From positions 1-64,000 of the forward strand of contig JABANP010000060.1 in NCBI GenBank assembly GCA_013115135.1: a stretch of 64,000 nucleotides of DNA. Reading direction: 5' to 3'. This stretch comes from Perkinsus olseni (taxonomy: Eukaryota > Perkinsozoa > Perkinsida > Perkinsidae). Under the pieces are notes generated by a model. It searched no databases and was not told the origin of the DNA. It saw nothing but the letters and a program-made list of their open reading frames with translations. Below, one piece after another: positions 1 to 26,400 of this stretch; the first letter of the stretch is position 1; each line of letters opens with the position of its first letter. The translations under genes and the position numbers were made by a program.

Positions 1-1137
1 CAGCGTTACGGTGGCACCGTACTCCCTCCTTGGTTTTCGATAACTCGGTGACTTGCTGGAGATATCTCACTAAGAGCCTCTCAGGCACCGGTTACTGAGC
101 GCAAGAGCCGAGCCTGCTCAGGAGACTCTGGAGGCTTTTCAGACTTCCAAGGGGAAAGTTGTTAAGCCAGGGCTCGTGAACGTGTCCGACCGTTTACGAG
201 ATTGTCTCGCGAAGACGAATAATTAGGCGGCGTCAAATACCAGATACTAATACGTTAAATAAAAGGCCCCTCAATATACTTGGTGTATCGAGGCAAAATC
301 CAAGGTAGTCCTCTGCGGGAGACACCCGTGTACGTGCTCATGCAACAGTGTATGTCACCGAGTTATTCATCGCAAGGGGTCGGTGTCAGGCACTGTAGTG
401 GCGGGTGTCTCGTTAATGTTTTTGTTTTCTGTTCTCTGGATTTTGGCCCGAAGTTTCCGGGTCCAAAGAGAGTAGATGTCACTCAGTGAGACTCACTGTG
501 AGAATCTCACATCCGCAGACCTCTTCCAGGCTGGAAGTTCCAGCGACTCGCTGGAAGCAAGTTCATACGAGAGCTTCGGCCCTCCCCAAACCTGCAGCGG
601 CTGCGGAAACTTTCCGCCGGAAAGTCGCTTAGCCCGAATTGAAGCATGCGCGAACCCGATTCGCCGAATCGAACTACGAGCTCAGCAGCCGGCTTCGCAG
701 TCGGGTGCTCGTCCGCCGCATTAGGAATACGGAAGCAGCGGCAAAGTGAGATTGGCCCTACTCCAACTACTCCGAAATGAACATCGAGTGAGCAAATCAA
801 ATTGTCCGCAACAATTTCTCGTGGGGTTAGAGCCCGGGCCTTAAATCTTGCTAATGCGCCAACTTCACTCCAGTGGTCCGTAGACCAACCGCGTTCAAGT
901 GACCATAGCCGCTACATCGTAGGGAAACTGCCTCAAAGGCCTCGGAAGCAGTCGTGGGCCCGAACTCAGCAGGAGAGTGGACCGAATAAGCCTGACAGAT
1001 CCCGACGTACAGCAGATGTCCGAGCTGACGCCGCCTGCCGTATCGACTGTCAATGACGAGTGAGCAGGGGTGGCCAGAGTCTGGCCGCCAGGCCACCCCG
1101 TTCACCGAATAATTTTCAGTGAATATATACCATTTCC
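1..1137 (+). repeat. Duplicated non-coding block, copy 1
   Basis: This stretch recurs in the same orientation at about 15641-16874, so the esterase cluster is flanked by two direct copies. Shared landmarks run from a GGCACCGTACTCCCTCC segment near the left edge to a GAATATATACCATTTC segment at 1121-1136. No reading frame is conserved between the copies, so I see no gene. The copies differ by scattered substitutions and by several 14-bp insertions of one geometry (see findings); copy 1 carries its own at 530-543, 547-560 and 1079-1092. The left end lies outside the window. It could be an old segmental duplication or a long dispersed element; the sequence does not decide. Confidence 0.8.
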
Positions 1138-1359
1138 AAACCTCTCTCTCTCGCTCGCGGCCGCCATACGGCCAGGCGACTCCAAACCACCGTGAGGGCA
1201 ATGTTGGAGTTTGTAAGGTTCTTGGTAGGGCGATCCAAACCACAATAAGTAGATAGCCTATCTAAGATAGGCGATGCGGCCTCGTGAGACATAGCTGGGT
1301 CTTCTTCAATAATCATAATGGTATCGCATGCAAACACAGACTATTTGCAATGCTACATT

Positions 1360-2400
1360 CCATTTTTTTCTTTTCTTTTTCTCTCTTTTTCTTGTTTCTT
1401 TTTTTCCTTTCTCTTATTTTCTTTTGTTTTCTTTTTTCCTCTTTTTCTTTTTTCTCTTTTTTTTTATTGTTGTTTTCTTTTTTTATTGTTGTTTTCGATC
1501 ATATTGCAGAGGCATATTGCAGCCTAGCCTGATGCTTCTCTTCCATGGTGCTCGATTTTTAGCAGTACTGGGTCTCACGCCAATATCTTTCATATCCTGC
1601 TTAACCAGATCTAGCCAAGTTTGACGGGGTCTACCAGTTCGTCGAGTACTGTAACAGTACTACTGTTGGTATGTACTCTCGCCGAAAACTATTGATCTCC
1701 TTATAGTCATCTTACCTTCTAAGCCCATATCATGCGATTTCCATATATCTCGAAGCCTATGTAAATTCGCTCCAGCAAAGCGGATTCGATCTCTTATAGA
1801 CGCTGAGTATCCGGGCCCATCCGTTATAAGTATTCCCAACTGCTTATATTTCTTGACTATACCGACCCGACTAGCACCATCCTGCTGCTCACAATTTATC
1901 AGCATCCTCTTCGTCTTGCAGTCCATTCCGTCGAAGCCTAGTCTAAGATTGGCAGGCAGCGCCTCGTTCCCCAATGCCGTGAAAGCCACGTCGCTCTCTT
2001 GTACCCCTTCTGTCGGAATGGTGACATCGTCAGCGAAACACAGACATCCAATTGGCTCCTGAAGCGGTGCTGCTTTCTCGGTGAAACGGGTATGTCTTCG
2101 AGCCAAGCAATCTTCCTTCGTGAGTCTAATACCATGTCCAGCTGATATTATACTTCTTCGAAGAACTGTATCCAATGATGTAATGAAGATCATCGGACTC
2201 CATATATCCCATTGCTCAACTCCAGATTCCAGCCTGACTTCGCACGTCTCATTATGGAGAGTTATCGATGCGATAGCGTCCGCATAACTTTGCTCTATGA
2301 TTCGTACTACGAATTTCGTAGGGACTTCGGATGTAAGCCCGTTCGCTGTAGACAGCACTTGGAATCTAGAGACCCTTCGAAGTCTTTTGGTTGGCCATTA
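1360..2400 (-). mobile_element. 5'-truncated non-LTR retrotransposon (LINE) with reverse-transcriptase 3' half
   Basis: Reading the minus strand from about 2358, one frame encodes the C-terminal half of a LINE reverse transcriptase. The palm motif FADD lies near 2021-2040, followed by a KTKRM segment and a region resembling the thumb of jockey/CR1-type enzymes. In the same frame a TAG at 1660-1662 interrupts the protein. The frame then continues through GRPRQTW (near 1625) and stops at 1483-1485, which is the usual C-terminus of such ORF2 proteins. Next comes an A-rich tail (T-rich on the plus strand, 1360-1495) typical of a LINE 3' end. The 5' part is missing, as expected of incomplete target-primed insertion. 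The copy is inactive. It abuts the left edge of the duplicated esterase unit near 2352. Confidence 0.8.
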
Positions 2401-5250
2401 CTTGCTCCGCCTGACGCATAGCTATTAAGATGTTAACAATCATGATGGTTGAATCATCAGTCATGCGGGGAGCTCGTTGAATTGTATCGCAATCTCTAAG
2501 CCATTTGGATGACGCAATTTTCGACCTGGTGCGAAGTCGAGTGCACCCGAGATGTTCATACTCCCAACACGACTCGACGATGTCATGCGAGAAGCGTCTT
2601 GAAAGGATAATGTCTTGAACGATTCCGTCATCTCATCCTGATAATATAAATGATACTACAGATCAGAATGCTGCCCGTACATCCGATGCGCCCGTCATGA
2701 GCGCATCGGGTCGCGAGTGGCACATCACATGTGGATGTAACAAGAAAAGCCTGGCACATGCGCGATTCGATGCCACAGGTCAGGGGCAAGACAACGAAAA
2801 AAAGTTAACACATGCTGCATTTGACATGCGTGATGAACACCAGCTGATCAGTTATCCAGCTGTGTTCATAGAAAATGTTCAGGGAAGGCCAAGGAAGAAT
2901 TTGATGGCCCAGTCAGCGGGGTCGAGATCTTGAGTTTTGATAACTTTATGGGCTGAACCGTGATAGCTGCAGTTGAACCTCTTGATAGATACGGCTCTCT
3001 CTTTCCCGGAACACTTCCACTCCTTCAGCCTCGTCCACTTGTTGATCCTTGTTGTATTCGTTACCTTTCTTTCGCATCCAAATCTACTAGCCCATCGTCG
3101 GATATCTCTGTTGGTCCTTGGGAGAAGGTTGGAGCTGAAGTACCGTTTAACGTCTTTCCCATAGATTGAACCATTGTAGGGAACCCATTGATCATCGATG
3201 CAGTGTATGCTGGCCACCCTAGGCACCGGAGGCTTCGGGCCGAAGGAAGCATTATTGTAGATATTATCACAGGTCTTGAAAGTCCCGTTCAAGCCAGGTT
3301 TCAGAGCCAGTACACCATTAACAGACACCGCCATTTGAACGACTTTATGGCACAGGAGGGATTCAACCATCATACCACCATTACTGAAACCATAACCATA
3401 GACGGGCAAGTTGTTCTTGTTCTCTTTTTCGAGGATGATTCTCGTGTAATTAACATCATCGATATCGTCTCTTTTGAGGCAGCAGATACCCGCGTTCCAT
3501 CCGTGTACAGGCTTGATATAGTTTGAATACCAGCCATATGAGCTACCACAGGCAGTGATCAATATCAGGCCGTACTTGTCGGCCAAGAGGCTATTATTAA
3601 ATTTGTTCTCCCACTTCTCGCAGGTTTCATGGTAACCATGATATTGAATGAGTATTCCCTTGACCTCGACACCTTTTGGAGGCATGTGGCGATAATAAGA
3701 ACGTGTTAGAGTAGTTTTGCCAAACCACCCATCAATATCCATTTCGAAGCTGAACTTCTCACTCCCTGGAATGCCCTTCAGTCTGACTTCACCAGCAGGC
3801 GCGTCCTCCTTGATCACAATATGTCTTCCTCCAACCACAGGTAGGCCAATTGAGATTCGGACACTGAACTGGGGAGCGTCGTCTGACTGGTTTTGGTACG
3901 GCTCATCGATCACGGTGTCGATGGAGTAATATTGAGGAAGTACAAGAAGCTCGTTCGTAAAGGTTACACCTGAGACGGATATGCAAGTAGCAGATACTAT
4001 GTGACATAATTCATCTCAATGATACAGTGATGCCTTCGAGAAATCAGCTCAGCTGACCTGAAACAGCTCGAACCCGCCTTACCCTTGTCTGAGAAGTCCA
4101 CACTATACGAATAAACTTCGAAGTAGGTATATTCGCTGACATTCAGCCTGAAAGGCAGGCGATCACCACAGCAGGTGAAGTATCCCACTCACTTCAGTCG
4201 CCTGAGCTCGTCCCTCATTCTGGGAGTGGCTGCGTTCACAAGCATATGATTCAAGAAAGGCGGGATGCATTCCTCGCTGATGAGAGCAGAACATCCTCAG
4301 GAGATCGTCGGATGAGAGAGGCCAGGCCGAGAGAGTCACTCACCTGAATGACACCGGATCATCGATGTCATTTTCGAGGCATTGTAGAGGAATGGGATGC
4401 AAGGCGTCTCTCCTGCCGACTCTCCTGAGGGTTCCGCCAGCGTTGTCTACCAGTCCCAGAACCGCTGCCGGGGGGAAGTGGAGCAGAGCAACGAGGTGCT
4501 GTAAGGCAACCATACGTACGAGGATATCCAAGTCTGCGCTGCCATAGTGTCTTCAAGGTCAAACCATGCATTACCGATGCACAACTCAATTCTTTCACCG
4601 CCTAACGTCATCACGGCTGATTATCAATTCATGCCGGGTAAGTCGCGCGGCGTACGCAGAAACGATCCGGGAAAGGAGACATCCGCACAAGCACCTTGCG
4701 CGGCCGAAAATAGTCCGCACACTGGACTCCTGGAGTCCGACTCCACGCACTATGGTGCCCAATCCGCAGCCCGCTGCGGACCGCAGGGGCGGTGGAGATA
4801 GTTGACCTTCGCTGCTGCTGTGTGTTGTTGGTCTAGCATCATCAAGAATACGTCAGAGCTCACTGCCTATATAAGACTCCTTTGTGCCTCTCTGACAGTG
4901 TCCCTCAGCAAGCTGTACACCCGTTTGTGTGCTCGCAATGCGTGCGAACCTATCAGTAGTAACAACCGCACTGGTTTACTCACCATCTCCTGGAAGGGGC
5001 ATACTGGTCGAGTATAATGGGAACTATAGCATATTCTATCTATTTCAGTCGAGATTCTCGCGTACGCGCGTTCCTGGTGCCCACGGACCGCCGAGCGGTT
5101 CGGTTCGAAAAATGATCTCCTAGAGTCTGGATCCTACGTCCTTCCTCAAGATAGTAAGACTCCTTGTCTAGCGTGCTGTAGCGTTTGTGTTGGGCTAGCT
5201 AGCTTAGCTACACCGCGGTTGGATCATGCTTACACAGTATACTGCGCGCG
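2352..5250 (+). repeat. Tandem duplication unit 1 (esterase copy 1 plus flanks)
   Basis: This unit matches 6500-9480 almost throughout, offset by about 4.26 kb. The match covers the 3' flank (TTGGAAT near 2360 and 6503, and the segment around 2500-2680), the whole four-exon gene and about 450 bp beyond its start. It is a direct tandem duplication. Differences include an extra ~115 bp in the second unit (about 6952-7070) and a 25-bp local inversion (see findings). Confidence 0.85.
2879..4513 (-). CDS. Secreted alpha/beta-hydrolase esterase, LpqC / PHB-depolymerase-like, copy 1
   Basis: Four exons on the minus strand: 4344-4513, 4193-4276, 4083-4147 and 2879-3969. All introns are GT-AG, phases agree, and the total is 1410 nt, or 469 residues. 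The start at 4513 is chosen because it opens with a hydrophobic leader (MVALQHLVALLHFPP) that reads as a signal peptide, so the enzyme is probably exported. The catalytic half carries YGFSNGG, a G-x-S-x-G nucleophile elbow near residue 297, an IHCIDDQWVPY acid region and a GSAH histidine near the C-terminus. This is the arrangement of LpqC/esterase-PHB and feruloyl-esterase-like hydrolases. The substrate is unknown. The ~120-residue N-terminal extension is shared with copies 2 and 3 and not recognised. Family assignment is good; function beyond ester hydrolysis is inference. Confidence 0.85.
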
Positions 5251-5259
5251 CAGATAGTC

Positions 5260-6480
5260 TTCTGATTATGAATAGAGATCGAAATAAGTCGGCAACGAGT
5301 CAGATACTGACAGCCCATGCTCGCCTCTCTTGGGCGGCTGCACCTGACGAGTATCATGTGAAATTTTCGTGACGAAAGAAGACTCTCACTGAGAGGTCTC
5401 TCTGCCTCAATCCTTTCTAGCTGAGATGTAGCGTAGAAGGGCTAGCAGGGCACATACCCCGTTATGCATATTACGGTGACGGCCGGGTCCAGATTATACG
5501 CTGTTTCAGTATTGACCTTCCTTGATTGCAGTCACTGCATCGAGGTGATAGATTAACCCACACTCGCAGCAGTTTCGATGGACTAACAGGATGGAAATAC
5601 TGCCGGGGACAACATCGTTGGCAGTTTATAATGTTCAGGCAATTCTGGAATACTTGGAATCACCTTTCGATGCCCCGGCTTGCCACAAGTGGCTAGCGCG
5701 GGTGTTCAAGCTCAGTGATAATGGAGAGGAGATCACACCGAAGATATTCAGAAGGGTATCCCTGAGCGATTAGGAACGCCGTTGCGAGAGTCTGAGGTGA
5801 TGGTGCTGCGGTTAGTATACTTGTGGGCCGTATCGTCAGCTTTCAGGTGACAGAATTCTTTCGAGCTGTGCCCAGGGCTGAGCCGTCGAGAGTGGCTGAC
5901 AGTGGAGAAGAGACGAAAGTGAGTGATGGTGGAGTCTCGCTGTTGAACATTTGGCGAGCACTCGGTCTGCATCGTGACGCTTCACCTCGCTCGTACACGA
6001 TGATGTAACGTCACTGAAATTGGTAGCATCGTGTCTGCGGACCGGCGAGAGTAACCTTGCGAATCGCGTTTGGTGGTAGTCCACACCATAATGCGCATCT
6101 AAGGGAATCCCAGTATTTTCGGAATGGTTGTGGTTGAATAGTATCCCGGCGAGGGTCTCTTGCAGCTAGCTCTACTGGGCAATGAGATGGGCTGGTTCCC
6201 ATCATGTGTCTTTATCGGCTCTGTCATGGTGGATTGAGAGGTATTCGGTTGATTTGGCATCAGACAACCTCCTGGTTGGTAATAGTAGCAGTAGAGGGGA
6301 GCTTGATACAACTGGGAGATGGCGGAGGATGATGTATGCAAAATATCGGAGTGCTTGTACCAGGTTGTTCGGTTGAATCATGGAGCCTGTAAAATGATGT
6401 TCTTTTCGATTCGTGCTGTCTTTGTTCCGTTGTGAAGCATCGACTGGCGCGGCTAGGCTGTGAGTCACATAAGCCAACTA
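5260..6480. other. No supportable gene
   Basis: Spacer between the two tandem esterase units. A 60-residue frame at 5591-5773 (plus) has no recognisable family and no splice context, so I do not call it. The segment around 6303-6410 recurs near 30536-30640, including GGTTGAATCATGGAGCCTGT, and is probably part of a dispersed repeat. Confidence 0.6.
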
Positions 6481-6499
6481 GGCGCGCTCCGAGCGAGCA

Positions 6500-9480
6500 C
6501 TTGGAATTTAGAGGCCCTTCGAACTTCGAAGGGTCTCTAGATTCGAAGTTCGAAGTCTTTTGGGTGGTTATAACTCGCTTCCTCTCGCGCATTGTTATTA
6601 AGATGTTAACAAACATCAGTCAGAATCTCGAAGCCATTTGGATGACTCAATTTTCGAACTGGTGCGAGGTCGAGCGCCCCCGAGGTTGTTCATACTCCTA
6701 ACACGACTCGACGATGCCACGCGAGAAGCGTCTTGAAAGGATAATGTCTTGAACGATTCCTTTATCCCATCCTGCCCTATCAGGATGATCGGATCATTCT
6801 GATCCTGATAATATAAATGATACTACGCATCAGAATGCTGCCCGTCATAGGCGCATCGGGTCGCGAGCGGCCCATCACATGCGGATGTAACAAGAAAAGC
6901 CTGGCACATGCGCGATTGGATGCCACAAGTCATGGGGCAAGACAATGAAAAAAGCGAGAATGATGTACGGAAGTATTCGATCGGATCTGTCCGTGATCAT
7001 CATCCTGCAAATCTGCTTCTGGCGTGAGTACACGCCTCTGGCGTCATCGTCGTGAATGATGCACTCACTAAAAAGTTAACACATGTCGCATGTGACATGC
7101 GGGATGAACACCAGCTGATCAGCTATCCAGCTGAAAATTTTCAGGAGAGGCCAAGAAAGAATTTGATGGCCCATTCAGCGGGGTCAAGATATCGAGTTCT
7201 AACAACTCGATGGGCTGAACCATGAAAGCTGCAGTTGAACCTCTTGATAGATACGGCTCTATCTTCTCCAGGGCACTTCCACTCCTTCACTCTTAGCCAC
7301 TTCTTGATCCTTGTTGTATTCGTTACCTTTCTTTCACATCCAATTCTGCTGGCCCATCGCCCGATATCTCTGTTGGTCCTCGGGAGAAGGTCGGAACTGA
7401 AGTACTTCTTATATTTCTTCCCATAGATTGAACCATTGTAGGGGACCCACTCATCATCGAGGCAGTGTATGCTGGCCACCCTCGGCACCGGAGGCTTCGG
7501 GCCGAAGGTGGCATTATTGTAGATATCGTCACAGGCCTTGAAAGCCCCACTCAAGCCAGGTTTCAGAGCCAGTACACCATTAACCGAGACCGCCATTTGA
7601 ATAACCTTATGGCACAGAAGGGATTCCACCATCATACCACCATTGCTGTAACCATAACCATAGACTGGCAAGTTGTTCTTGTTCTCCCTCTCTAGGATAA
7701 TCCTCGTGTAATTAACATCGTCGATATCTTCTCGCTTGACGCAGCAAACGCCTGCATTCCATCCGTTCGCGGATATCAAAAGGCGTGAATACCAGCCATA
7801 CGAAGAACCACACGCATTGATCAGTATCAGGCCGTATTTATCGGCCAGGGCGGTAGTATTAGAGTACTTCTCCCATTCCTCACATGAACTGCGATAACCA
7901 TGATACTGTAGGAGTATACCCTTGATCTCGACATCCTTAGGGGGGAAGCGGCGATAATAGGAACGTGTTAGAGTAGTTTTGCCAAGCCATCCATCAATAT
8001 CCATTTCGAAGCTGAACTTCTCACTCCCTGGAATGCCCTTCAGTCTGACTTCACCAGCAGGCGCGTCCTCCTTGATCACAATATGTCTTCCTCCAACCAC
8101 AGGTAGGCCAACTGAGATTCGGACACTGAACTGGGGAGCGTCGTCTGACTGGTTTTGGCGGGGCTCGTCAATCACGGCGTCGATGGAGTAATATTGAGGG
8201 AATACAAGAAGCTTGTTCGTAAAAGTTGCACCTGAGGGAGCGGACGGAATGATGGAATTGCGAGGAGCAGATAATATGTGGCATAATCCATGTCAATGAA
8301 GTGATGCCTTCAAGAAATCACCTCAGCTGACCTGAGACAGCTCGAACCCGCCTTACCCTTGTCTGAGAAGTCCACCCTATACGAATGAACTTCGAAGTAG
8401 GTATTGTCGCTAACATTTAGCCTGAAAGGCAGATGATCACCACAGCAGGTGAAATATCCCACTCACTTCAGTCTCCTGAGCTCGTCCCTCATTCTGGGAG
8501 TGGCTGCGTTCACAAGCATATGATTCAAGAAAGGCGGGATGCATTCCTCACTGATGAGAGCAGAACATCCTCAGGATAGAGGGGAGGCCGAGAAACTCAA
8601 TCACCTTAGAGACACCGGATCCATGGCACCATTGAGGCATTGTGGAGGAATGGGATACAAGGCGCCGTTGCCGACTCTCCTGAGGGCTCCGCCAGCATTG
8701 TCTACCAGTCCTAGAACCGCTGCCGGGGGAAAGTAGAGCAGAACAATGAGGTGCTGTGATGCAACCATACTTACGAGGATATCCAAGTCTGCGATAATGT
8801 CTGCAAGGTCAAACCATGCATTACCGGTGCTGAAAGAATTGAGCTGTGCACCGGCGGTGCTGGAACTGTCGCGAACTGGACACACTACGGTGCCAAATTG
8901 GCACCGCCATTGGCGGCCCGCCAATCCCCTGCAGCAGTGGAGATAGTTGAACTTCGCTGCTGTTGTGTATTGTTGGTCTAGCATCATCGAGGATACGTCC
9001 AAGCTCACTCCCTAAGTAAGACTCCTTGGTGCCTCTCTGAGAGACTCTCAGACACTCTCAGTGAGAGTGTCCCAGGAACACTGCCGCTAGGTTAGGAAGA
9101 AGATTACTGTCGCCCGGTTACTTTCCTAGTGACCCTGTCCATGTGCGAACGCTAGCTGAGGGATAGCTAGCTGAGGGACGCTACTGTCCCTCAGTGCGTC
9201 CGTTTGTGCGCTCGCAATGCGTGCGAGCTTATTAGTAATAACAACCGCACTGGTTTACTCACCATCTCCCGGGAGGGGCATGATGGTCGAGTATAATGGG
9301 AATTATAGCATATTCTATCCATTTCAGTCGAGATTCGCGTGTACGCGCGTTCCTGAAGCCCACGGACCGCCGAGCGGTTCGGTTCGCAAAATGATCTCCC
9401 AGAGTCTGGATCCTACGTCCTTCCTCAACATAGTCAGACTCCTTGTTTTCGCGTGCTGTAGCTTGTGTTGGGCTAGCTAG
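6500..9480 (+). repeat. Tandem duplication unit 2 (esterase copy 2 plus flanks)
   Basis: Second copy of the 2352-5250 unit. Its left edge carries an extra ~31 bp made of inverted copies of CCTTCGAA (6519-6560) that copy 1 lacks. Near 6775-6810 a single ATCCTG of copy 1 has become ATCCTG / CAGGAT / ATCCTG. The far end carries extra TCTCA/TGAGA palindromes (9040-9072). Confidence 0.85.
7141..8768 (-). CDS. Secreted alpha/beta-hydrolase esterase, LpqC / PHB-depolymerase-like, copy 2
   Basis: Same gene structure as copy 1: exons 8605-8768, 8467-8550, 8357-8421 and 7141-8231. Total 1404 nt, or 467 residues. Exons 2, 3 and 4 are exactly as long as in copy 1 (84, 65 and 1091 nt), and all junctions are GT-AG in matching phase. 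Signal peptide MVASQHLIVLLYFPP. The nucleophile elbow is YGYSNGG, and the acid and histidine regions are kept, so the copy looks functional. Protein divergence from copy 1 is modest and clusters in surface segments of the catalytic domain (for example the stretch after QYHGY), which may reflect a shifted substrate range. Tandem position suggests recent local duplication. Confidence 0.85.
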
Positions 9481-9489
9481 CTTAGCTAG

Positions 9490-10820
9490 CTAGCTATCTA
9501 GCCCAACAGCTAGCCCAGGCTAGGCTGTCTAGCTGTCCTCTCTCTGAGTTTGCTCTCCTCTGCTTCTTCTCGGGTGAGGCTTCAGAGTTCGCCTTGCCCT
9601 CGAGCATTTCGTCTAAGGTAGGCATAGACCCAACTGCGCGACCTCCTGTGTGTGAGTAACTCACAGTTTGACTATAAACTCACAGTGAGTTTATAGTCAA
9701 ACGCCGGTTCCGGTTTAGTTATAATCTTGGCGATGTGTTCAGTAACTGAACTTCAGTTGGAGACTCTCTGTAGTCTCGACAATGTCGATCCGACATGCAA
9801 TGCCATCAGACAGATTGTCAAGAAGCATTCCTCAGCCTGAGGACCTGAGGGGTACAGACTGTACCGTACAGTCAACCAGATTAGGTTCCTTTCCTCCTGG
9901 CAGGATCCGAAACCCTCTTTTCAGACTCACGGAGTCCGTATCCGACTCAGCTCGAAATTCAGCTTGTGCTTCCACAGGTTTGCATCATCCAAGCATATGT
10001 CGCGTGCAGTGCGAGACTGCTGAACCATCTTTATCATTCATGAATGAGCTTTCTGACTTCCCACTAGTTACAGTCATCGAAAGGCCACGAAGAAGAGAAG
10101 TGATTGCTACAAATATATCGGGCCGAGATTCGAACTTTTTTGTTCGATAATTCGGTCCGTGACATGTTTAAACCATATAGCAATGTGAGGAGAGCTCATA
10201 GTTGAAATCTCAGGACCATATGAGCTCTGGGTGAGAAGTTGTGCCGGTAACACGAGAGGGACTCGTTAGATTGCGCATGCTGTTGCAGCATTGCTGTATC
10301 CCACTGCTGCGACTGATAGTGATTGGGGATTCATGAGATACATGCTGTTACCATGTCGTCTCTGAAAATGCATGGTGCATGGTAATGTATATTGCAACGA
10401 TAGAAAACGTAAAGCGATTCATTTCCGTTAGCCTTCTAGACCGTCATCCTTGCAACTGCTGGGACTCAACACTACTACGAGAATAAGGTAGAAGACCTGT
10501 GTTAAGTGGAAGGTCTTTCATAGAAATTCAAGTGACTCTATCTTATGAAAAAGTTGATATTACTACGCACTGCGTAGTACACAGGAATAACAACGGATGC
10601 AATCATCGCGTGTCGAAGGTGTGGGGAAGTGGCACATACACCTCGTCGGCTAAGGTAGTAAGGCACGGGAATCTGTCGAACGGAAATGAAATATACTCGG
10701 ATCTAATCATCATACATCCTGAGCTACTCATTAGCACCATGGCAATTCTGGCAGGGTAATGGAGCTCTGTTGGAATCAGAAGTAGGATCAGCTGATCAGT
10801 TTCGCAGCTGAAGTCCTGAT
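9490..10820. other. No supportable gene; palindromes
   Basis: Nothing codes convincingly here. A perfect 18-bp inverted repeat with a one-base spacer sits at 9666-9702. The stretch from about 10540 to 10827 is the 3' flank of an esterase gene and recurs at about 11800-12080, downstream of copy 3, which shows that the relic at 10828-11091 arose by tandem duplication. Confidence 0.6.
9666..9702. repeat. Perfect inverted repeat, 18-bp arms, 1-base spacer
   Basis: Arms 9666-9683 and 9685-9702 are exact reverse complements around a single A at 9684. One of a class of one-base-spacer palindromes in this window. Confidence 0.95.
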
Positions 10821-10827
10821 AAAAAGA

Positions 10828-11091
10828 TTAGCTCAGACCAAGAAAGAAATCAACGGCCCATCTTGCAGGGTCGAACTCGTCTGTTCTGACAACAGAATGG
10901 GCCAAATCGAACCACCCTTTGTCCTTGCCGCAGTTGAACGGTTCAACTTGAACCTCTTTATAGAGACGGCGCGCTCCTCTCCTGGGCACTTCCACTCTTT
11001 CAGTGTTATCTCGTCATTCAACTTAGTCTTGGTAGTCTCCTTCCTCGCGCATCCGAGTCTACTGGCCCAACGTCTGATATCCCTGTTGGTT
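10828..11091 (-). pseudogene. 5'-truncated esterase relic (copy 4)
   Basis: The minus strand encodes only the C-terminal end of the esterase family (RRWASRLGC, then LKEWKCPGEERAVSIKRF, then the usual tail ending in FFLGLS and TAA at 10828-10830). Homology stops abruptly at about 11091, next to the TTACGG-rich repeat. The frame is broken by a 14-bp insertion at 10940-10953. There the single TTGAAC present in copies 1 and 2 (TTGGAC in copy 3) has become TTGAAC-G-GTTCAA-C-TTGAAC. Its 3' flank matches that of copy 3, so it is a tandem partner of that gene. Not functional. Confidence 0.85.
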
Positions 11092-11093
11092 AT

Positions 11094-11600
11094 ACATAGG
11101 CACCGTTACGGCTTCTTTACGGTTTACGTTACGGTGCGCGTAACGTAATTAGTTTACGGTTACGGAAGGGGCTTACGACTTCACGGTTGGTGCTGAACTG
11201 CCTTTTTGGGATTGTGGCGGAAACATTCGCTGTAAGGCATTTCACCATAGCTCAAATAGGGGTTTAGTATTCCCTTAGTTGTTAAACTCATTATTGGTGG
11301 TTAGGATTCAACCGAACCGCTGGGAGACTAACATTGGGCTCCGCATTGACCGCTCGTCTCCCTTTGAATTCCATCCGTCTTAATCCTAGACTGACCCGGA
11401 ACTGCCGAGCCGGCCTCGTTTACGCATGCGCATTCACATGAAACAGACTTAAACGACTTGAATGGTGATTCCTCGTTTTGTCCATTACATCTCCGTAAGA
11501 GCCGTTACGGCGCCGTAATTTTACGTTACGGGCCTTGAAGCGTAACCGTAAAAGTCAGCCGTAACGGTCCGTAACGTAAATCTGCCCATCTATACGAGCC
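11094..11600. repeat. TTACGG-rich inverted element, MITE-like
   Basis: Both ends carry clustered TTACGG / CCGTAA words in opposite orientation (11103-11165 and 11505-11580), flanked by AGGCACCG on the left and the complement of TAGATGGGC on the right. This looks like a non-autonomous DNA transposon with degenerate terminal inverted repeats. It abuts the point where esterase copy 4 is truncated. I could not find a convincing target-site duplication, so the exact limits are uncertain. Confidence 0.5.
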
Positions 11601-12661
11601 AGATATTTTCAGAGATAGCATGAGAACAAGAAGTAGTACTTCCAAAGTACTCCCATTCCTCTGGCCTCCGGAATGATCCCCGACCTGAATGTTGTGACCA
11701 AACACCACTCGAAGACATCCTGGAATACCGGTGTTGAATCAACGGCATTTCATATAAACTTATGTGACTAAGTCACAGTGACTATCTCAACGAACTTGGT
11801 AATACTACGCCGCGCAGACAACGGATGCAATCATGCGTGTCGAAGAGGGTAGGGGGAATTGCATTCACACTTTGTGTGCCAACGTAGAAAAGACGGGGAA
11901 ATGTTCTACAAAGAAATGTGGAAATAGAAATATTGAGTCTGCTGATCAGACTCCGATTATCGTCATACATCCCGAACTCATCATTAACGCCATGGCCATT
12001 ATGGCAGGGTAATGAAGTTCTGCTGGAATGAGGAGAAGTAGAAGCAGCTGACCAGTTTTGCAGCTGAAGGCCTAATGAAAAGATTAGTCAAGGTGAAGAA
12101 AGAAATCAACAGCCCATTTGGCCGGGTCGAACTCGTCGGTTCTGACAACAGAATGGGCGTACTCGAGCCACCCTTTGTCCTTGCCACAGTTGGACCTCTT
12201 GATAGAGACGGCGCGCTGCTCTCCTGGACAGTTCCACTCCTTCAGCGATGTCCCGTTGAACGGAGCCAAAGTAGTGTCCTTCTCCGCGCATCCGAATCTA
12301 CGGGCCCAACGTCTGATATCTCTGTTGGTTCTTGGGAAAAGAGTGGCGGTGCCCCAGATAGTATCATCTTTGCTCAAGACTGAACCCTTGTAGGGAACGA
12401 CTTCATCATCGATGCAGTGTACACTGGCCACCCTTGGCACTGAAGGCTTTGGACCCAAGGAAGCATTATTATAGAGATTATCACAGGTCTTGAAGCTCCC
12501 TTGTAGACCAGGATTCAAAGCCAATACAGCATTGACGGCGACGGCTCCTTGAATGACTTTATGGCACAAAAGGGATTCCACCATCATACCACCATTACTG
12601 TAACCATAACCATAGACAGGCACATTTTTTTTGTTCTCCCTCTCGAGGATAATCTTCGTGT

Positions 12662-13925
12662 CAGGGTGGTTGATGAGTGGAAAGGATCGTTACAAAGTTT
12701 CCGGGAAAGGAAAAAATTGTAACAGGAAAGAATGGGACCGGAAAGAACGGAAACTTTCCACTCCACGCGCGGCGAGCGAAATTTCCTTCGGGTGCGATTT
12801 TTTTTCTTGCGCTAACGCGCAAGACTGGTCGTGGTCAAGTTGAGTTACGACCCATATCCTCCCATAGGTTTAGCGCCTCATCGTGGCGTGGAAGTGCTAG
12901 CACAAAGCTGAACCGAACTTACCGCGCTCAACAATCCTCTGGAGGTATGGACGAAGTCACATACCGTCGGTGAAGCCGGCCGTGTGGGGACATTCGACAC
13001 AAAGGTGCAGCGTTGGGACACCAGCTGCACAGCTAGCGCTAGTATCGGACTCGGTTTCTGCCTTCGGCTACTTGAGTTGAGTTGACTCATTTATATTCGG
13101 GAGGAAGACGGCTGCGTCCCTGCGGAGACGCGTGGGTCGCGCCGCCAGGCCTCTCTTTCGTCTTAAGCCGCCCTCCCTAAACCCTGCAAAAACCGAGAGT
13201 GTGGGTGAGCTCGTCACCATCCAAAGGATGGGGCGGGCTGGACGTGTCTAGCACCGTTACCAGGGCAAGGTGCTTGGTCGAATACTCGGCTTTCATGGGC
13301 CTGCAAGTCCGTGATCGCTTGGGTTTCGGCGGTTCCGAGAGCTCTCTCACGGAACTGCGCCTGCCTCAGGTTCCGGCGCTCGCACGCCCCACTCCCCCTC
13401 CCCACACTCAGAGGTTTCACCCAGCTGGTGGTGACTGAGTGGCGGCAAAAGTGCCCTTCCCCTTTCTTTGACAATCCATCACCCCTTCTCGTCCCTACGC
13501 TGTCGATTCGCCGCTATGATTACTACCAACTTGTTTAGGTAGTACAGCTCGGACAATACCACGGCCTTGGTAGTACCAAGGCTGTGGCATTGTCCGATTG
13601 TCAGAAGCTCTCACTATGATTGGGAAAAATATTGGGCGCGCGATGCTGATGTTCCGCGGGCACTATTCAATCTCGCTCGCCCAAAATTGCACCTAAGCAA
13701 TTTAGCCCCGAATGAATTCGATGAAGATGATTTAAGACGTGCAACATGTGCGTTCTGCACTGGAGGCTCCGAAATACCCGAAAAGTGGCAAAAACTGAGC
13801 GAAGTTGGCGATTTTTAAAAAAATTTCCTTAAATTTGCATTCTTTCCGGGAGTATTCCTTCCTGGAAAGTTTCCTTGGGAAAGTTACGGAAAGGAAGAAT
13901 GATTCTTTCCACTTCAACCACCCTG
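12662..13925. mobile_element. Non-autonomous hAT-type DNA transposon, 1264 bp
   Basis: The ends are terminal inverted repeats: CAGGGTGGTTGATGAGTGG on the left, and CAGGGTGGTTGAAGTGGAAA read inward from the right. An 8-bp target duplication CTTCGTGT sits at 12654-12661 and 13926-13933. CAGGG termini with 8-bp duplications are characteristic of the hAT superfamily. Subterminal regions contain inverted GGAAAG/CTTTCC words. No transposase frame is present, so it must have moved in trans. It carries a near-perfect 22-bp palindrome at 13551-13595. It inserted into exon 4 of esterase copy 3. Confidence 0.9.
13551..13595. repeat. Near-perfect inverted repeat, 22-bp arms, 1-base spacer
   Basis: Arms 13551-13572 and 13574-13595 match at 20 of 22 positions around a G at 13573. 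It lies inside the hAT-type element. Confidence 0.9.
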
Positions 13926-14397
13926 CTTCGTGTACTCCACATCGTCGATGTCTTGTCTCTGAATGCAGCAGGTACCCGCATTCCATCCGTTCACCGAGTA
14001 GAGAGCCCTTGAATGCCATCCGTAATTACTCCCGCAGGCGGTTATCAAAATCAGGCCGTGTTCATCGGTAAAAGTAGACGTCTTAGAGTACTCCTCCCAC
14101 GCCTCGCATGAGCCACCCCAACCGTGGTACTGTATGAGTATCCCCTTGATCTCGACGCCCTCAGGAGGCATGTGGCGATAATAAGAACGTGTTAGAGTAG
14201 TTTTGCCCCAAAGGACCCCATCGATCTGTGTTGTGAAGCTGAACTTCTCACTTTCTGGGGCCACAGTGGTCTTCGTTTGGAGCATCCTACGGAATATTGG
14301 GGACTCGTGGGGCATAAGATGTCTCCTTGGGGTCAACGAGACGACCTCAACAGTGCGGACAATGAACTGAGGGAGGTCAGCTGATTGATCTTGGCGG

Positions 14398-14440
14398 GGT
14401 TCCTCAATCACGGTATGATTCATACCGTGATTGAGGAACC
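14398..14440. repeat. Perfect inverted repeat, 21-bp arms, 1-base spacer, inside a dead exon
   Basis: Arms 14398-14418 and 14420-14440 are exact reverse complements around T14419. The right arm and its continuation are absent from the corresponding exon of copies 1 and 2, so the palindrome was made by inserting an inverted copy of the local sequence. The insertion keeps frame but adds a TGA. Confidence 0.95.
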
Positions 14441-15640
14441 GTGAATGAGGTAGAACCGTGAATCATACCGTATGAATGAGGTAGTCTTGTGGGCCAACAC
14501 GGAGCTGATTCTCATAAGTCGCACCTGGGGAAGACGAGGAAATGTTGAGGATATAACAAGAAACAGCGGCGCCGGGCCAGCGCCTGAGCTAGCTCATACC
14601 CGTCTTACCCTCTTCGGAGAAAGTGACATGGTATAGCTCAACCAGGAAGTAGGTTTTGTCACTGACATCTTGCCTGAGTGACAGATTGGTATCCCAACGG
14701 GCGGTCTCTCTAACTCACTCTAGTCTCCTTAGCTCGTCCCTGATTGTCGATGTGGCCGCTTGCACGATCATATGGTTCAAGAAGGGCGGCATGCATATCT
14801 CACTGATGAGAGCAAAACATCCTCGGGATGTCGTGATATAGAAGAATCGAGGCGCCCTCTCTTGTAGGTACTTTCCCATGGAACGATGAACCCCGCCCAG
14901 GGAAGCTCGAACTCACCCTCGAAAGGCCGAGCTTCTGAAACCACCGAGGCATTCTTCGGGAATGGGTTGCAGGTTGTTGTTGTCGTTGCCGGCACTCTCA
15001 GGAGCTAAGCCACCGTCCACCATTATCAGCGCAGGAGCGGAGCAGAGCAGGAGAATGAGCTGCTGGAAGGTGGCCATGGTGTGAAGGTATCCAGGGTCTA
15101 CGCAGATCATAGCCTCTTACCATACGATTCTTACTCCGCGTAAGATAAGTGCTATATACGGAAATGTCAGAAGGAAGCAGACAGCGTAAAAGTTGCCTAC
15201 ATCTGGTCTCTACGTACGGCTTTGCTAGTTGTCCGTTTGTCCCTTCACTACAGGCGCTCATCACACATCTAGTCCGGAAGTTTTTGCTGCTACTAAAGCT
15301 TATCCTGTTCAGTTGTGCATGCGTGTAAGCTAGGCTAGCAGTCCATCGACCAGAATAGAGCATACAATAGACGCTCTCACATATCCCCCGACTAGTATTC
15401 AAGGCTGTGAGCCACGACTGAGCAACAGCTGGTGCTTAGACACTCGGTGGACCTCCCAAGATCCCCTCTTAATCGTCCGCGTCTGTCGAGGAGCTCGCAA
15501 AGTATCTGGAACTCCCCAACCCCGACTGTACCGGGACAGTGTCCCCACGTCGCGACGTCACCGGCGTTGGCCTTCTGGAGTACTTCGCCCTCCCCCCCTT
15601 TGTTCGGAGGTAGTACGGTGGTTCTCACAGTAGAAACCAC

Positions 15641-16874
15641 TATTACGTGGCACCGTACTCCCTCCTTGCTTTTCGATAACTCTGTGATTTGCTGGAGATC
15701 TCTCACTAAGAGCCTCTCAGGCACCCGTTGCTGAGCGCAAGAGCCGAGCCTGCTCAGCAGACTCAGGAGACCTTCCAGAGTTCCAGGGGAAAGTTGCCAA
15801 GTCAGGGCTCGTGAACATGTCCGACCGTTTACGTCGTAAACTTTACGAGATTACCTCGCGAGGACGGTAATTAATGGTGAGAAAAGGCCCCTTAATATAC
15901 TTCTTGTACCGAGGGAAAATCCAAAGTAGTCCTCTGCGGGAGACACAGTGTACGTCACCGTTATTCATCGCAAGGGGTCGGTGTCAGGCACTGTACTACA
16001 GTGACTGTAGTGCCGGGTGTCCCGTGAATGTTCTTGTTCTTTTGTACAACCTCTTGTAGTGACCACTCATCAAGAGCTCCCTCAACTTAGGGACCCTCAA
16101 CAAGAGTGGGCGCTTGAGTCACTCAAGCTGAGTGTGCACAAGGCCCTTAGTAGAATTCCACAATGAGTCTGGAGCTGGGTTTTGGCCCGAAGTTTCCGGG
16201 TCCTTAGAGGGAAGTGGATGTCACTCAGTGTCACCGAGTCAGTGAGACTCACTGTGAGAATCTCACATCCGCAGACCTCTTCCAGCGAGTTCGTACGAGA
16301 GCTTCGGAACTCCCCAAACCTGCAGCGGCTGCGGAAAGTCGCTTAGCCCGAATTGACGCATGCGCGAATCCGATTCGCCGAATCGAACTACGACAGTTTA
16401 AACAGGACGCGTTCGACGCGTCGTGCTCAACAGTCGGCTTCGCAGTCGGGCGCTCGTCCACCGCATTAGGAATACGGAACCAGTGGCGAGGTGAGACTGT
16501 CCCTACTCCGACTACTCCGAGATGAACATCGAGTGAGCAAATCAAACTGTCCGCAAAGAGCTACCGGTTTCTCGTGGGGTTAGAGGCCGGGCCCCAAATT
16601 ATGCTAATGCGGTAACTTCACTCCAGTGGTCCGTAGACAAACCGCGTTCGAGTGACCATAGCGGCTACATCGTAGGGAAACTGCCTCAAAGACCTCGGAA
16701 GCGGTCTGGGCCCGAACTCAGCAGGAGAGTGGACCGAATAAGTCTGACAGATCCCGACGTACAACAGTTGTCCGAGCTGACGCCGCCTGGCAGGCGGCGC
16801 CTGCCGTATCGACTGTCAATGACGAGTAAGCAGGGATGGCCAGACTACCCCGTTCGCTGAATATATACCATTTC
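15641..16874 (+). repeat. Duplicated non-coding block, copy 2
   Basis: Direct repeat of 1-1137 (see that entry). Relative to copy 1 it contains 14-bp insertions at 15834-15847, 15996-16009, 16231-16244 and 16790-16803, each made of alternating direct and inverted copies of the adjacent 6-base word. It also has extra material around 16050-16165. No conserved reading frame. Confidence 0.85.
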
Positions 16875-17009
16875 AAGACCTACTTAGTGAAACCCCTGAG
16901 CGAATCAGTAAAACCCCAGAGCAATTTAGTCAGGGACGGACCAAATTAGTAAAAACTCAGAGCAATTCAATAAAGTCCATAGTCCGGGCCCAAGACTAAG
17001 TAATTGAAG

Positions 17010-17749
17010 CGGATGGGTTCGAGGCATCTGCTGATATTGACGACTCCTACGATGAAGCTTGGGGAGAAGATGTGGATCGGAGCACAAATAGATCGACCAA
17101 AGGCATTGGAAGCCTCTTGAAGAAGCTCCGTAATCATGGCCGATGTTTTCGACAGTCGAACATCGTGCTCGATCTACTCCAACAGTCTGTTGAAGAGTCC
17201 CTCGCTGTCAGGGTTCCGACCATTGGTAAGGGAGTCCCTGATGGTCATAGGTTCCGTCACGGAACTTCCGTGTCATACGGTATGACACGGAAGTTCCGTG
17301 ACGGAACTCAGCGGACGTAAGGTATATCGACATAACTAATGCCGATAAGGCATTATAACGTGTCTTCTTATAACCGGTGCCGATATGGCACCTTAATGGT
17401 GCCACCGTAAGGTATATCGCGTATATCGGTATATAGAGCATATATCTCTATTATGACTCATACCTAGGGATGTAGTGGTGCGCTGGAATAGCCCCAGAAG
17501 TTGTTATCGTGGTTCTCGGCCTCGGTTAGGGAGGGGGTCGCAAGGTATAAACAGCAATGCTTGGCTCATCGTGGTTCGGAATCCGAACTTCGGGCAAACT
17601 TAAGGCAGGTACATGAAGGCATGATGTAGTCGTATGCTGTGAACGCTTTGTCTCCGTCAGATGAGGAGCTCATCGATAGTTTGCAAGGCCTCCTTGCTCT
17701 CTTTAGCAGGCCACCATTAAGTTTTGGGGGTCTACATTGCCCACTATAT
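17010..17749 (+). pseudogene. Decayed hAT-like transposase fragment, 5' side of the retrotransposon insertion
   Basis: Short plus-strand coding-like stretches resemble the middle of hAT transposases: a segment from about 17040 to 17225 with IGSLLKKLRNHGRCFRQS followed by VRVPTIG (where intact proteins have a TRW motif), and a segment ending at 17749 containing EELIDSLQGLLALFSRP. The frame is broken, including by a perfect 28-bp palindrome at 17251-17307. The LTR retrotransposon inserted at the end of this fragment, and the continuation is at 25855-26140. Identification rests on motif spacing alone and is moderate at best. Confidence 0.45.
17251..17307. repeat. Perfect inverted repeat, 28-bp arms, 1-base spacer
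   Basis: Arms 17251-17278 and 17280-17307 are exact reverse complements around G17279. Each arm itself contains the 6-1-6-1-6 pattern TTCCGT-C-ACGGAA-C-TTCCGT (17252-17271 on the left arm). Confidence 0.97.
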
Positions 17750-19637: not shown

Positions 19638-22600
19638 GGGTGTTTCAACTTTTGCAATTCGTGGTTCTGCAACGGTTGCAAAAATGAGCCTGTGATTGCA
19701 ACAGTGTTGCAGAGTAGTACAACCAAGTACCAGCAACGCAACCCGATGTCGGAAAACTCAACATTAGCAGTGTTGCACTCCTCACGTACGAAAATGCAAC
19801 TCTATGTTGCAAATATGAGGCGTATCCACAATTTTGCAACATGTATGTACATATTGCGGTACGTGCGGAACTTCGGAACACGCGTGCCACTTTCGAAACA
19901 CACGTGCCGCTTTTGCAACACGCATGTCACTTTTGCAACATGCATGCTACTTTTGAAACATGCGTAGCACTTTCGCGATACGCCTCATACCGCCGCAGAG
20001 TACGGAGCCAAGTGATCGAATGCTCCAAGTTTGACATGGTCTGATCAGCGTAGGTACAGCGTGGAGGTTAAGCTTCATGTTTGTCTATCGAATGGCCTCA
20101 GTTCGATCCCCGGGTCAGGAAAGTATAAATACGGTGGATATAATTGACGGAAATCTCGATTCGAAACCTCGAGGTGGCCTATCATAGGCCGCCTGTATGA
20201 CGATGTGGTGCAGTGTACGAGTGAGAATCGTGTGTGACCTCTACTAGAGGTCCTCTACGATGAACTGGCTATTACTGTACGCCGTGAAATAAGCCTGATG
20301 CATTGCATGATATAATGCCCGTGCTGAGGTTTAGGCTAAACCGTTTTGCAGCTGCACATTATAAGAGTAGAAGCCATTGAAAGGATAATATCACTGAGTA
20401 TTGCCCTATAATAACCTTTGCAACTCAACGGCAACCCCCTCAAATTTTGAAACTCCGTATAATCATCCTGTCGATAAATTCAAATAAAAATTGTTTCAAA
20501 TAAACTACCAATTATCGGATAACTATCATCGATTACACCGTGTTCGTCGATCGACCGGTGCCCATGATTGTATCAATTATCACTGCTGCGAACGCGGACT
20601 CATGAATCCTGGTCATCGCTCCTCTGCATACGTAGTGTTTTACCCACACCGGGGGGCAAATCAGGTTGATCTTCGGATGGTCTTGGGTGGATTTTTCCAC
20701 GTCCTGGCACATACCTTACCTGGGGCTGCAGGCTTAACCTGTGCGCCGGATACCGAACCAATGTCAGCCTGGGTCAGGTCCACAGGCTTTGATGGGGCTG
20801 TGAGCTCGGTCCTAGCAGAGGTTGCTGGCCCTTGGACGCCCGTTTGTTGAACCCCTCCGCGGCTAAACCATTTCGAAGTGTTCAGCCTTTGCTGATTTCG
20901 AAGACGCGCCTCAATCTCATGTTTAATCTTTTCGAGGCACTTAGGAAGACGACCTGAGCACCAAGGGAAGATCTACACTCGCACAAAATAGCCACCCCGC
21001 AAGTCAGCCCTACTACCCGACCGCCCAACCGAGACGTCCAGCTCGCCTCTTTCCCACGCCGCGATGACAGATTTGTACTATCACTGTCCCACTCAATCGT
21101 TGCTGCCAGCATGTGCCAAAACCGGGGTGGACGCGCTGTGAAATATGAAAGCGAAATTTCATGCTGAAATTTCATGAAATCTCATGAAACGCACGCTTGG
21201 GCCGTCAAATCTTAAACGCGCTCCGCGCGTTAAGAATTTCGCTCCCCATCGGTGTGGCGCTCAACAGTTTTGCCGGTTGCATAAATGTGGGCAAATCAAC
21301 GTTGGCAGCCCGCTTAGTGTATATACTCTGTACTTCCAGGTAGTATGTGACACACTGTGTGTCCATGATGGACAGTCCATCCTCGTCCACATTGTGAAGT
21401 TTTAATCGATCTGTGCTGCGACCAGTGCTAATTCGTCGCCTAGTTCGCGATATGAAAGTTGAATTTGCTGGATCTTGTTGAGTTACTCTGAAGTTCGGTT
21501 AGAACTTTTCGAGTGATATCCACTGGATATTATCCCCCATAACTAGCCGTATCAGAATAACGTAACGAGAATGTGGCTCCATGGATTAATAACAGTTATT
21601 CCGGAGTTACTCCGGGATATGGAATCCAACTCTGAACCGACGACTCGTCGGCGACGAGATACAAGCCTTGATTAACTAGCTGTACTAATGGTATTTCACC
21701 CGGCTCTAACACCATGGTACTTCCATGATGGTGGTAGACCCTGGAATCATGGTTTCAAGCCAGGTGCACTCGGTCTGGTTGAGCGCACTGGATAACTGCG
21801 CGGGAGAGTGTGTTATCGCTCGGGGTGATCGATTTCATCGTTTCAACAGAACCCACGAAATTTCATGAAATTTCATGAAATTTCACCGCGAAATTTCGGG
21901 GCTCGTGCCCTGCGGGCACATGCTGGTTGCTGCCATGCTCCGCGTCACCTGCTCCACAGTGCGCCAGTGATACAATACCGTATGTTTGTAGTACGAACGT
22001 ACAGAGTTGAATTGGGATTATCCATGTAATTTACCCTTGCCAGGATGTTGCATCGCGACACTGACCCCCGAAACAAGAGGGGCGGGTATCAGAATAAGTC
22101 GGATTCAATCAGATGGCATCGAAAGTCTTGTGCGTACTACGCACTGCGCAGTGTTGAGTCCGAATTTGAACAAAGTTGTACGGTAGAAACTGTAGCGTAG
22201 AGCCTCTATCCTAAAGGCATGAACTGTTTGCCGCACTTTCCGAAGGATACCCAGGAGGCTTTCATCAGCTGTCGACGGCAGCCTGTCGGGGGCGAGTTAG
22301 TAACTCGGAGTTACCACAGAATGTAGGCGCTGATATTCGAGATTTCGTAGCCTCGAAGCTCCCAGAAGATTGAAAAGATTGGGCTCGACTGAAAGGGCAA
22401 AGACGCAGTAAGCAGAACTCAGGGGCTACAACTCACAAGCCCCATGAACTTTATGCCATGGAGTATCAGGGAAAAGCTTCCGACCAAAGCGTTTCGCCGG
22501 CAACGTGAAGTCTCGTAAACTTGCAATATGAATTTCGGTATCGGAGAAACCGCGGAGCACAAAGAGAAACTACAGAGACCGCTAGATATGGTCGCCAGGA

Positions 22601-26369: not shown

Positions 26370-26400
26370 CCGAAGAGGCTTTCACTGAAAGCCTCTTCGG
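26370..26400. repeat. Perfect inverted repeat, 15-bp arms, 1-base spacer
   Basis: Arms 26370-26384 and 26386-26400 (CCGAAGAGGCTTTCA and its complement) flank C26385. Confidence 0.95.

What the first reader, a model, noticed from the sequence alone, without database searches (positions are those of the whole stretch)
524..17271. Recurrent 14-bp insertions with a fixed geometry: W - x - W' - x - W (6-1-6-1-6)
Comparing internal duplicates shows insertions of exactly 14 bp at a 6-base word W, each adding one base, the reverse complement of W, one base, and W again. Exact cases: TTCCAG-G-CTGGAA-G-TTCCAG (524-543), TTGAAC-G-GTTCAA-C-TTGAAC (10934-10953), TTTACG-T-CGTAAA-C-TTTACG (15828-15847), ACTGTA-C-TACAGT-G-ACTGTA (15990-16009), CGCCTG-G-CAGGCG-G-CGCCTG (16784-16803). 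Cases with substitutions: 541-560, 1073-1092, 16225-16244; a decayed one at about 1105-1124. In each of these the duplicate copy has a single W. TTCCGT-C-ACGGAA-C-TTCCGT (17252-17271) has the same form but no partner to compare. Ordinary template-switch mutations give inverted copies of variable length. A fixed 6-base arm, one-base spacers and a third, direct copy suggest a specific process, for example two successive fold-back synthesis events or cleavage with a 6-base stagger followed by hairpin fill-in.
Basis: seen in the sequence. Interest (0 to 1): 0.88.

Follow-up and report, generated by a model that had tools for sequence, protein, structure and literature searches.

The report
Uniform transposon excision scars, 8-bp sites
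A mollusc parasite's genome carries many short palindromic scars that look like repaired exit wounds of jumping genes of the hAT type, nearly all mended the same way, which gives a record of how one kind of DNA break is repaired.

Summary
In detail: 35 exact 6-1-6-1-6 units in the window, other spacings 0-3; 38 in 182,454 b from 20 other contigs, others 0-2. The genome is Perkinsus olseni by database labels. The true unit is 22 bp, V[1-7] + rc(V) + V[2-8], with V an 8-bp site (62 exact in 246,454 b). Duplicates without it have a single V, so each event adds 14 bp. An 8-bp site with an inverted copy centred on the complement of the bordering base is the anatomy of hAT excision footprints. hAT transposase domains and hAT elements with perfect 8-bp duplications are present. 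Rarer forms copy 10-31 bases from the same hairpin tip. Best explanation: flank hairpins are opened 8 nt or more from the tip; both ends carry V, so the tails are complementary over 8 nt, anneal, and give one product (annealing inferred). No site with element in one copy and scar in another was found. New variant of a known kind.

The parts
523..544 (.). footprint, V=CTTCCAGC, exact 22-mer
   Evidence: the same 22-mer also in the homologous C93 copy and at two places not similar to the window
540..561 (.). footprint with 2 mismatches, overlapping the previous one (28-bp gap against the duplicate)
604..623 (.). footprint core, exact; 14-bp gap in duplicate
1072..1093 (.). footprint with 1 mismatch
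1251..1270 (.). footprint core, exact
1647..1666 (.). footprint core, exact; empty in C93 copy
2301..2320 (.). footprint core, exact
4725..4744 (.). footprint core, exact
8904..8923 (.). footprint core, exact
9738..9757 (.). footprint core, exact
9852..9871 (.). footprint core, exact
10933..10954 (.). footprint V=GTTGAACC, exact; empty in C93 copy
11764..11783 (.). footprint core, exact
12654..13933 (+). hAT-like element (12662-13925, ends CAGGGTGGTTGA) with 8-bp duplication CTTCGTGT, carrying a nested insertion; no element at this site in the 21 paralogues examined
14398..14476 (.). long-tail footprint, V=GGTATGAA, arm 21, filler, right tail of 7; C93 has a single V
15827..15848 (.). footprint V=GTTTACGA, exact; empty in duplicate
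15989..16010 (.). footprint V=CACTGTAG, exact; empty in duplicate
16224..16245 (.). footprint with 2 mismatches; empty in duplicate
16365..16384 (.). footprint core, exact
16783..16804 (.). footprint V=CCGCCTGC, exact; empty in duplicate
17251..17272 (.). footprint V=GTTCCGTG, exact; C93 has a single V
17272..17464 (.). long-tail footprint, V=GTCATACC, arm 28 (its tail is an inverted copy of the previous footprint, which makes the second exact unit at 17287-17306), long filler, right tail of 6; C93 has a single V
20238..20257 (.). footprint core, exact
21361..21380 (.). footprint core, exact
21638..21657 (.). footprint core, exact
22294..22313 (.). footprint core, exact
26079..26098 (.). footprint core, exact
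26370..26441 (.). long-tail footprint, V=GCTTTCAG, arm 15
27006..27025 (.). footprint core, exact
27099..27118 (.). footprint core, exact
28031..28041 (-). sequence TAGAGATGGGC as at the ends of a second hAT family, 5 bp from the next footprint core
28047..28066 (.). footprint core, exact
28812..28831 (.). footprint core, exact
29311..29357 (.). long-tail footprint, V=ATCTCTCC, arm 16, left tail directly joined to full right tail
29863..29882 (.). footprint core, exact
34417..34454 (.). long-tail footprint, V=CGTACTTG, arm 10; similar one with the same V in L015
37150..37169 (.). footprint core, exact
38188..38207 (.). footprint core, exact
42123..42205 (.). long-tail footprint, V=CAACCACT, arm 31; the stretch is also present in a 96%-identical copy on C93
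42230..42249 (.). footprint core, exact
45804..45883 (.). long-tail footprint, V=TTTCCAAG, arms 10 and 13 at its two ends
46681..46700 (.). footprint core, exact
48696..48715 (.). footprint core, exact
62263..62282 (.). footprint core, exact
63612..63631 (.). footprint core, exact
63625..63644 (.). footprint core, exact, overlapping the previous

Best explanation
Each unit is the scar left when a transposon that duplicates 8 bp (a hAT element) leaves its site. Inserted state: V-element-V. The transposase nicks one base inside each flank and closes each flank end as a hairpin, so the flank strand reads V[1-7] followed by rc(V) (inferred from the one-base centre; the chemistry is known for hAT elements). 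The host opens each hairpin some distance from its tip (inferred; long forms show 10-31 nt). The two 3' tails then carry rc(V) and V, complementary over 8 nt because the site was duplicated on insertion. They anneal, flaps are trimmed, gaps are filled, and the product is V[1-7] rc(V) V[2-8], +14 bp over the empty site (inferred). When annealing fails, both tails are kept, often with filler between, giving the long-tail forms (inferred).
For: Geometry: V=8 with offset 1 on both sides gives 62; the other 15 offset pairs at V=8 give 0-1, and V=10-12 give 0-1. Single V in duplicates. hAT dimerisation domain: 21 matches. In 39 stretches scanned, 2 elements with hAT-like ends and an 8-bp duplication, 0 with 6, 7 or 9 bp. 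Perfect 8-bp duplication in 6 of 10 further copies of the window's element whose ends I fetched (5 by script, 1 by eye). The site of the window's insertion is uninserted in 21 paralogues. Palindromes with one central base and arm 10 or more: 32, against 4, 3 and 4 for gaps 0, 2 and 4; gap 3 gives 28, which I read as mostly the same palindromes counted from the next pair out. 21 of the 32 have the expected partner V[2-8] or V[1-7] with at least 5 nt of rc(V), against 14 of 59,836 random centres; some of the 21 are two ends of one event or homologous copies. One hAT copy on C92 (L056) has at its left end TATCATA, CTATGATA and then the element truncated by about 5 bp, as after an aborted excision (one such end among about 50 looked at). 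Footprint sites prefer R at position 7 (66%) and S at 8 (70%; 107 sites); bases next to hAT ends show R 23 and S 22 of 27 distinct flanks.
Against: No site was found with the element in one copy and the scar in another; the one candidate (L122) was inconclusive because the element's right end was not reached. Matches to the two hAT end sequences are few (36 and 35, control 6 and 5) beside roughly 11,000-13,000 exact scars (extrapolated), so most source elements are unseen. 11 of the 32 long palindromes have no partner. Site preference agrees only at positions 7-8: at positions 1-2 the hAT flanks (S 16, Y 12 of 27) do not show the preference of the footprints; one of 28 distinct flanks was dropped from that count because it lies in a footprint-like repeat. 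A scan for any inverted ends gave more rows for 5- and 6-bp duplications (20, 19) than for 8 (9), so the 8-bp specificity holds only for hAT-like ends. Published Ac/Ds footprints are varied (PMC5873905), whereas here forms with 5-7 inverted bases number 11 (expected under 1) against 61 full ones, the one-base-each form 7 against 3.8 expected, and the form without inverted bases 135 against 60 expected, the last not told apart from tandem repeats. Repair genes single out no pathway: one weak Ku match, 9 family-A polymerase matches, one Pso2/Artemis-type match.
Confidence: 0.85

Rival explanations
1. Footprints of another cut-and-paste superfamily that also duplicates 8 bp and makes flank hairpins, not hAT.
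For: The source element of any given scar is unknown; matches to hAT ends are few beside the scars; site preference agrees only in part.
Against: hAT-like ends occur with exact 8-bp duplications and none with 6, 7 or 9 bp; the one-base centre is the one described for Ac/Ds footprints (PMC5873905 passages); aborted-excision-like end on a hAT copy (L056).
Confidence: 0.09
2. Fold-back or template-switch synthesis at replication forks, without any transposon.
For: It yields inverted copies; the long forms contain filler, part of which resembles nearby flank.
Against: It does not explain an exact 8-bp site with a one-base offset at both ends, the site preference, or that palindromes without the third copy are scarce (43 of 264, against 23-28 for even gaps).
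Confidence: 0.03
3. Programmed, development-linked removal of very many hAT-derived elements, comparable to ciliate internal eliminated sequences, with the scars as its residue.
For: Scars far outnumber visible elements; one product dominates.
Against: Intact elements remain in the assembly; scars with 0, 1 and 2 mismatches are about equally common, which suits accumulation over a long time; no second genome form is known to me in this group (recalled).
Confidence: 0.04
4. Assembly or library artefact.
For: Inverted chimeras are common library artefacts (recalled).
Against: Units with 1 and 2 mismatches are nearly as common as exact ones (62, 45, 53); the unit at 523-544 is shared by the window and its 94%-identical C93 copy, the long form at 42154 likewise by a 96%-identical copy.
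Confidence: 0.01

Closest known systems
Ac/Ds (hAT) excision footprints in plants, Saccharomyces cerevisiae and Candida albicans (PMC5873905 and PMC1978519, passages seen)
   Same: Palindromic P-nucleotides centred on the complement of the base bordering the element; hairpin intermediate; end joining with microhomology.
   Different: There the products are varied (28 kinds among 128 C. albicans revertants). Here one product with all 8 inverted bases dominates, and the record is natural and genome-wide.
P-nucleotides in V(D)J recombination (recalled)
   Same: Hairpin ends opened off-centre leave palindromic bases.
   Different: There the palindrome has no central unpaired base and no target duplication to anneal (recalled).
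Template-switch mutations with inverted copies (recalled)
   Same: Inverted copy beside its source.
   Different: Variable length, no fixed 8-bp site (recalled).

Membership tests
hAT excision footprint | 8-bp target duplication | tested here: met
   V length 8 exact in 62 units; hAT elements in the genome with perfect 8-bp duplications
hAT excision footprint | inverted bases centred on the complement of the base bordering the element (one-base offset) | tested here: met
   offset 1 on both sides; rule as stated in PMC5873905
hAT excision footprint | empty site with a single V | tested here: met
hAT excision footprint | hAT transposase in the same genome | tested here: met
   21 matches to PF05699; whether any is active was not tested
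hAT excision footprint | element in one copy and scar in another at the same site | tested here: inconclusive
   one candidate, L122, element's right end not reached
hAT excision footprint | variety of products (typical, not defining) | tested here: not met
   one product dominates; long-tail forms are the minority
hAT excision footprint | dependence on transposase | not testable with these tools
   needs an excision assay

The most novel reading that the evidence does not exclude
In this lineage the repair of hAT excision breaks is close to deterministic: the target duplication itself supplies an 8-nt complementary pair of tails once both hairpins are opened far from the tip, so the genome carries on the order of ten thousand scars of one format. 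They form a datable archive of excision in a eukaryote, possibly from wholesale or programmed loss of elements.
Probability: 0.3. Interest if true: 0.8.

Novelty: new variant of a known kind. Interest (0 to 1): 0.62.

Why it matters
Each scar records both the 8-bp site and the repair outcome, so excision can be counted and dated without the element, and the pathway that opens and joins hairpin ends can be read from sequence. The 14-bp insertion shifts frame, so it is a source of mutation. The format (V=8, offset 1) can be scanned for in any genome, which makes natural hAT activity and hairpin repair comparable across eukaryotes. I found no description of this in the listings, which cover open-licence papers only.

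Tried and rejected
Arm of 6 with free spacer bases: rejected by the outer pairs. Shorter inverted tails as a graded series: rare. Half footprints (one palindrome without the third copy): little above background (43 of 264, even gaps 23-28). Loss of NHEJ as the reason for uniformity: not supported, a weak Ku match exists. Same-site element/scar pair: flanks of two hAT insertions searched; one candidate without the element (L122) could not be decided. Flank search of the window's element: 22 places, one of them itself; 19 fetched plus 2 in the window are uninserted with no scar at that site; one paralogue, L078, has a scar elsewhere in the gene. Reading the four identical units as one inherited event: wrong, only the C93 copy (L002) is similar to the window; L001 and L003 are not, so the same V was probably hit more than once. 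Avoidance of long frames as proof of selection: dropped, because a 14-bp insertion itself shortens the frame it lies in; the counts are 17, 2, 0 and 0 of 107 in stop-to-stop frames of at least 150, 200, 250 and 300 codons that cover 33, 19, 14 and 14%. Confirming the scars in another assembly through a protein: not informative. A first self-comparison failed on BLAST settings and was redone.
Full report
What is there. It is genome-wide: 38 exact 6-1-6-1-6 units in 182,454 b from 20 other contigs, other spacings 0-2, 14 of 20 stretches with at least one; as full 22-mers 33 there and 29 in the window. Extrapolating gives about 11,000 exact 22-mers or 13,000 exact 6-1-6-1-6 units in 61,483,535 b; these are estimates, not counts. 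In the sample of window plus those 20 stretches (246,454 b), units with 0, 1, 2 and 3 mismatches number 62, 45, 53 and 75, against 0-1, 0-5, 2-4 and 16-38 for six shifted geometries, so the units seem to decay with age.

Whose genome. A window protein matches Perkinsus olseni proteins at 96-100%, and five contigs that hold proteins labelled FOZ60 in that species have the same lengths as contigs of this assembly (94040, 103642, 17444, 121598 and 42245 b). The species name is thus inferred from database labels.

The true unit. In 73 exact 6-1-6-1-6 units the base before the first W pairs with the second spacer and the base after the last W pairs with the first spacer in 62; one of the two in 11; neither in 0. 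So the unit is V[1-7] rc(V) V[2-8] with V of 8 bp. Scanning V lengths 6-12 and offsets 0-3 on either side, V=8 with offsets 1 and 1 gives 62; other offsets at V=8, and every cell at V=10-12, give 0-1. V=9 gives 0 except two cells of 12 and 16, which I read as chance extensions of the same units by one base on one side. V=7 gives 0-5 except 13, and V=6 gives 0-26 except 74, in the cells with the shortest matches, where chance counts are high.

The ancestral state. In alignments of duplicates the copy without the unit has one V. In all data then held there are 9 gaps of 14 bp, 8 fitting with at most 1 mismatch, or 7 distinct events, 6 fitting. Between the window and contig C93, 15 gaps of 14, 14 fitting, in both directions (one event counted twice).

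Why a transposon scar. An 8-bp site, duplicated on insertion, and an inverted copy centred on the complement of the base next to the element are what hAT excision leaves. [quoted passage not shown] passages of PMC1978519 describe hairpin formation, opening and microhomology joining for Ds and cite Hermes. The nick one base inside the flank and the 8-bp duplication of hAT elements are recalled. The genome holds hAT transposase domains (21 matches) and at least two families with hAT-like ends, CAGGGTGGTTGA and TAGAGATGGGCA. In 39 stretches scanned, elements with such ends and a perfect duplication were found for 8 bp (2) and not for 6, 7 or 9 bp; a looser scan for any inverted ends was not specific (20, 19, 1, 9, 0 and 3 rows for 5 to 10 bp). 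The window's own element at 12662-13925 is flanked by CTTCGTGT and is missing in the 21 paralogues examined. Of 10 further copies whose ends I fetched, 6 have perfect 8-bp duplications, 1 has differing flanks, 1 has a damaged right end and no visible duplication, 1 (C92) has lost both ends, and for 1 I did not place the second end. The C92 copy begins with TATCATA, CTATGATA and then the element from about its sixth base, the form expected of one hairpin end rejoined to the element.

Site preference. The 107 footprint sites (at most 1 mismatch) prefer S at positions 1 and 8 (70%), Y at 2 and R at 7 (66%), counted on both strands. Among 27 of 28 distinct flanks of hAT end sequences, position 7 is R in 23 and position 8 is S in 22, but positions 1 and 2 show little (S 16, Y 12). 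One flank (three copies) was dropped because it lies in a footprint-like repeat.

Independent evidence for hairpins. Palindromes with a single central base and arms of 10 or more number 32 in 276,454 b, against 4, 3 and 4 for gaps of 0, 2 and 4. In 21 of 32 the other half of the scar, V[2-8] preceded by at least 5 nt of rc(V) or the mirror image, lies within 400 bp; among 59,836 random centres 14 do. Two of the 21 are of canonical or nearly canonical spacing, and some are two ends of one event or homologous copies. Examples in the window: 17279 (arm 28; its tail is the inverted copy of the scar at 17251-17272, which explains the second unit at 17287-17306), 14419 (arm 21), 42154 (arm 31) and 29327 (arm 16, the two tails joined directly). 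At 14419 and 17279 the C93 copy has a single V. These forms run past V into the flank, as expected if the inverted bases come from the flank strand folded at the one-base tip. Filler between the tails sometimes resembles nearby flank, as polymerase-theta-like joining would give (inference from reading, not counted).

Why one product dominates. Because both flanks end in V, the opened 3' tails are rc(V) and V and can pair over 8 nt whatever the exact place of opening, if it is 8 nt or more from the tip. Pairing, flap trimming and filling give only the observed 22-mer. Forms with 5-7 inverted bases number 11 (expected under 1) against 61 full ones; the form without inverted bases is 135 against 60 expected, not told apart from tandem repeats. 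The annealing step is inferred. The genome has 9 family-A polymerase matches, one Pso2/Artemis-type match and one weak Ku match, which allow but do not prove it.

Position. 17 of 107 scars lie in stop-to-stop frames of at least 150 codons (33% of the sample), 2 in frames of at least 200 (19%), 0 in frames of at least 250 (14%). This fits insertions that break frames, but a scar shortens its own frame, so it is no measure of selection. One scar sits inside a paralogue of the hydrolase-like gene family (L078).

What is not shown. No site with element and scar in different copies; no direct proof that hAT, and not another superfamily with the same chemistry, made the scars; no second assembly was examined at the DNA level.

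Noticed in passing
window 2879-3913, 7141-8175, 12045-14258: Gene family with 22 matching places in the genome, several on C67 and C93, resembling short-chain PHA depolymerase / S9-type hydrolases (NF050058 E 2e-15, below its cut-off); the third window copy is broken by the hAT element.
   Followed up: partly
window 12931-13420: A piece of about 485 bp nested in the hAT element, up to 98% identical to other places of the genome: a separate repeat family.
   Followed up: no
window 21099-21933: Possible third hAT-like element: inverted ends CAGCATGTGCC and an 8-bp duplication GTTGCTGC around 819 bp.
   Followed up: no
window 22798-25686: Retroelement frame with integrase domains; 98% identical stretch in L024.
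   Followed up: no
window 1663-2358 (minus): Reverse-transcriptase-like ORF; best relative in P. marinus (61% identity).
   Followed up: partly
L001 1500, L003 1500, window 523: The same exact 22-bp scar also lies in two loci that show no similarity to the window around it: the same V seems to have been hit more than once. L001 and L003 were not compared with each other.
   Followed up: partly
L123: By eye, tRNA-like stretches in a row beside a truncated copy of the hAT element on C268; not run through a tRNA finder.
   Followed up: no
L007 3248-6113: Four concentric inverted-repeat rows suggest a large near-perfect palindrome.
   Followed up: no
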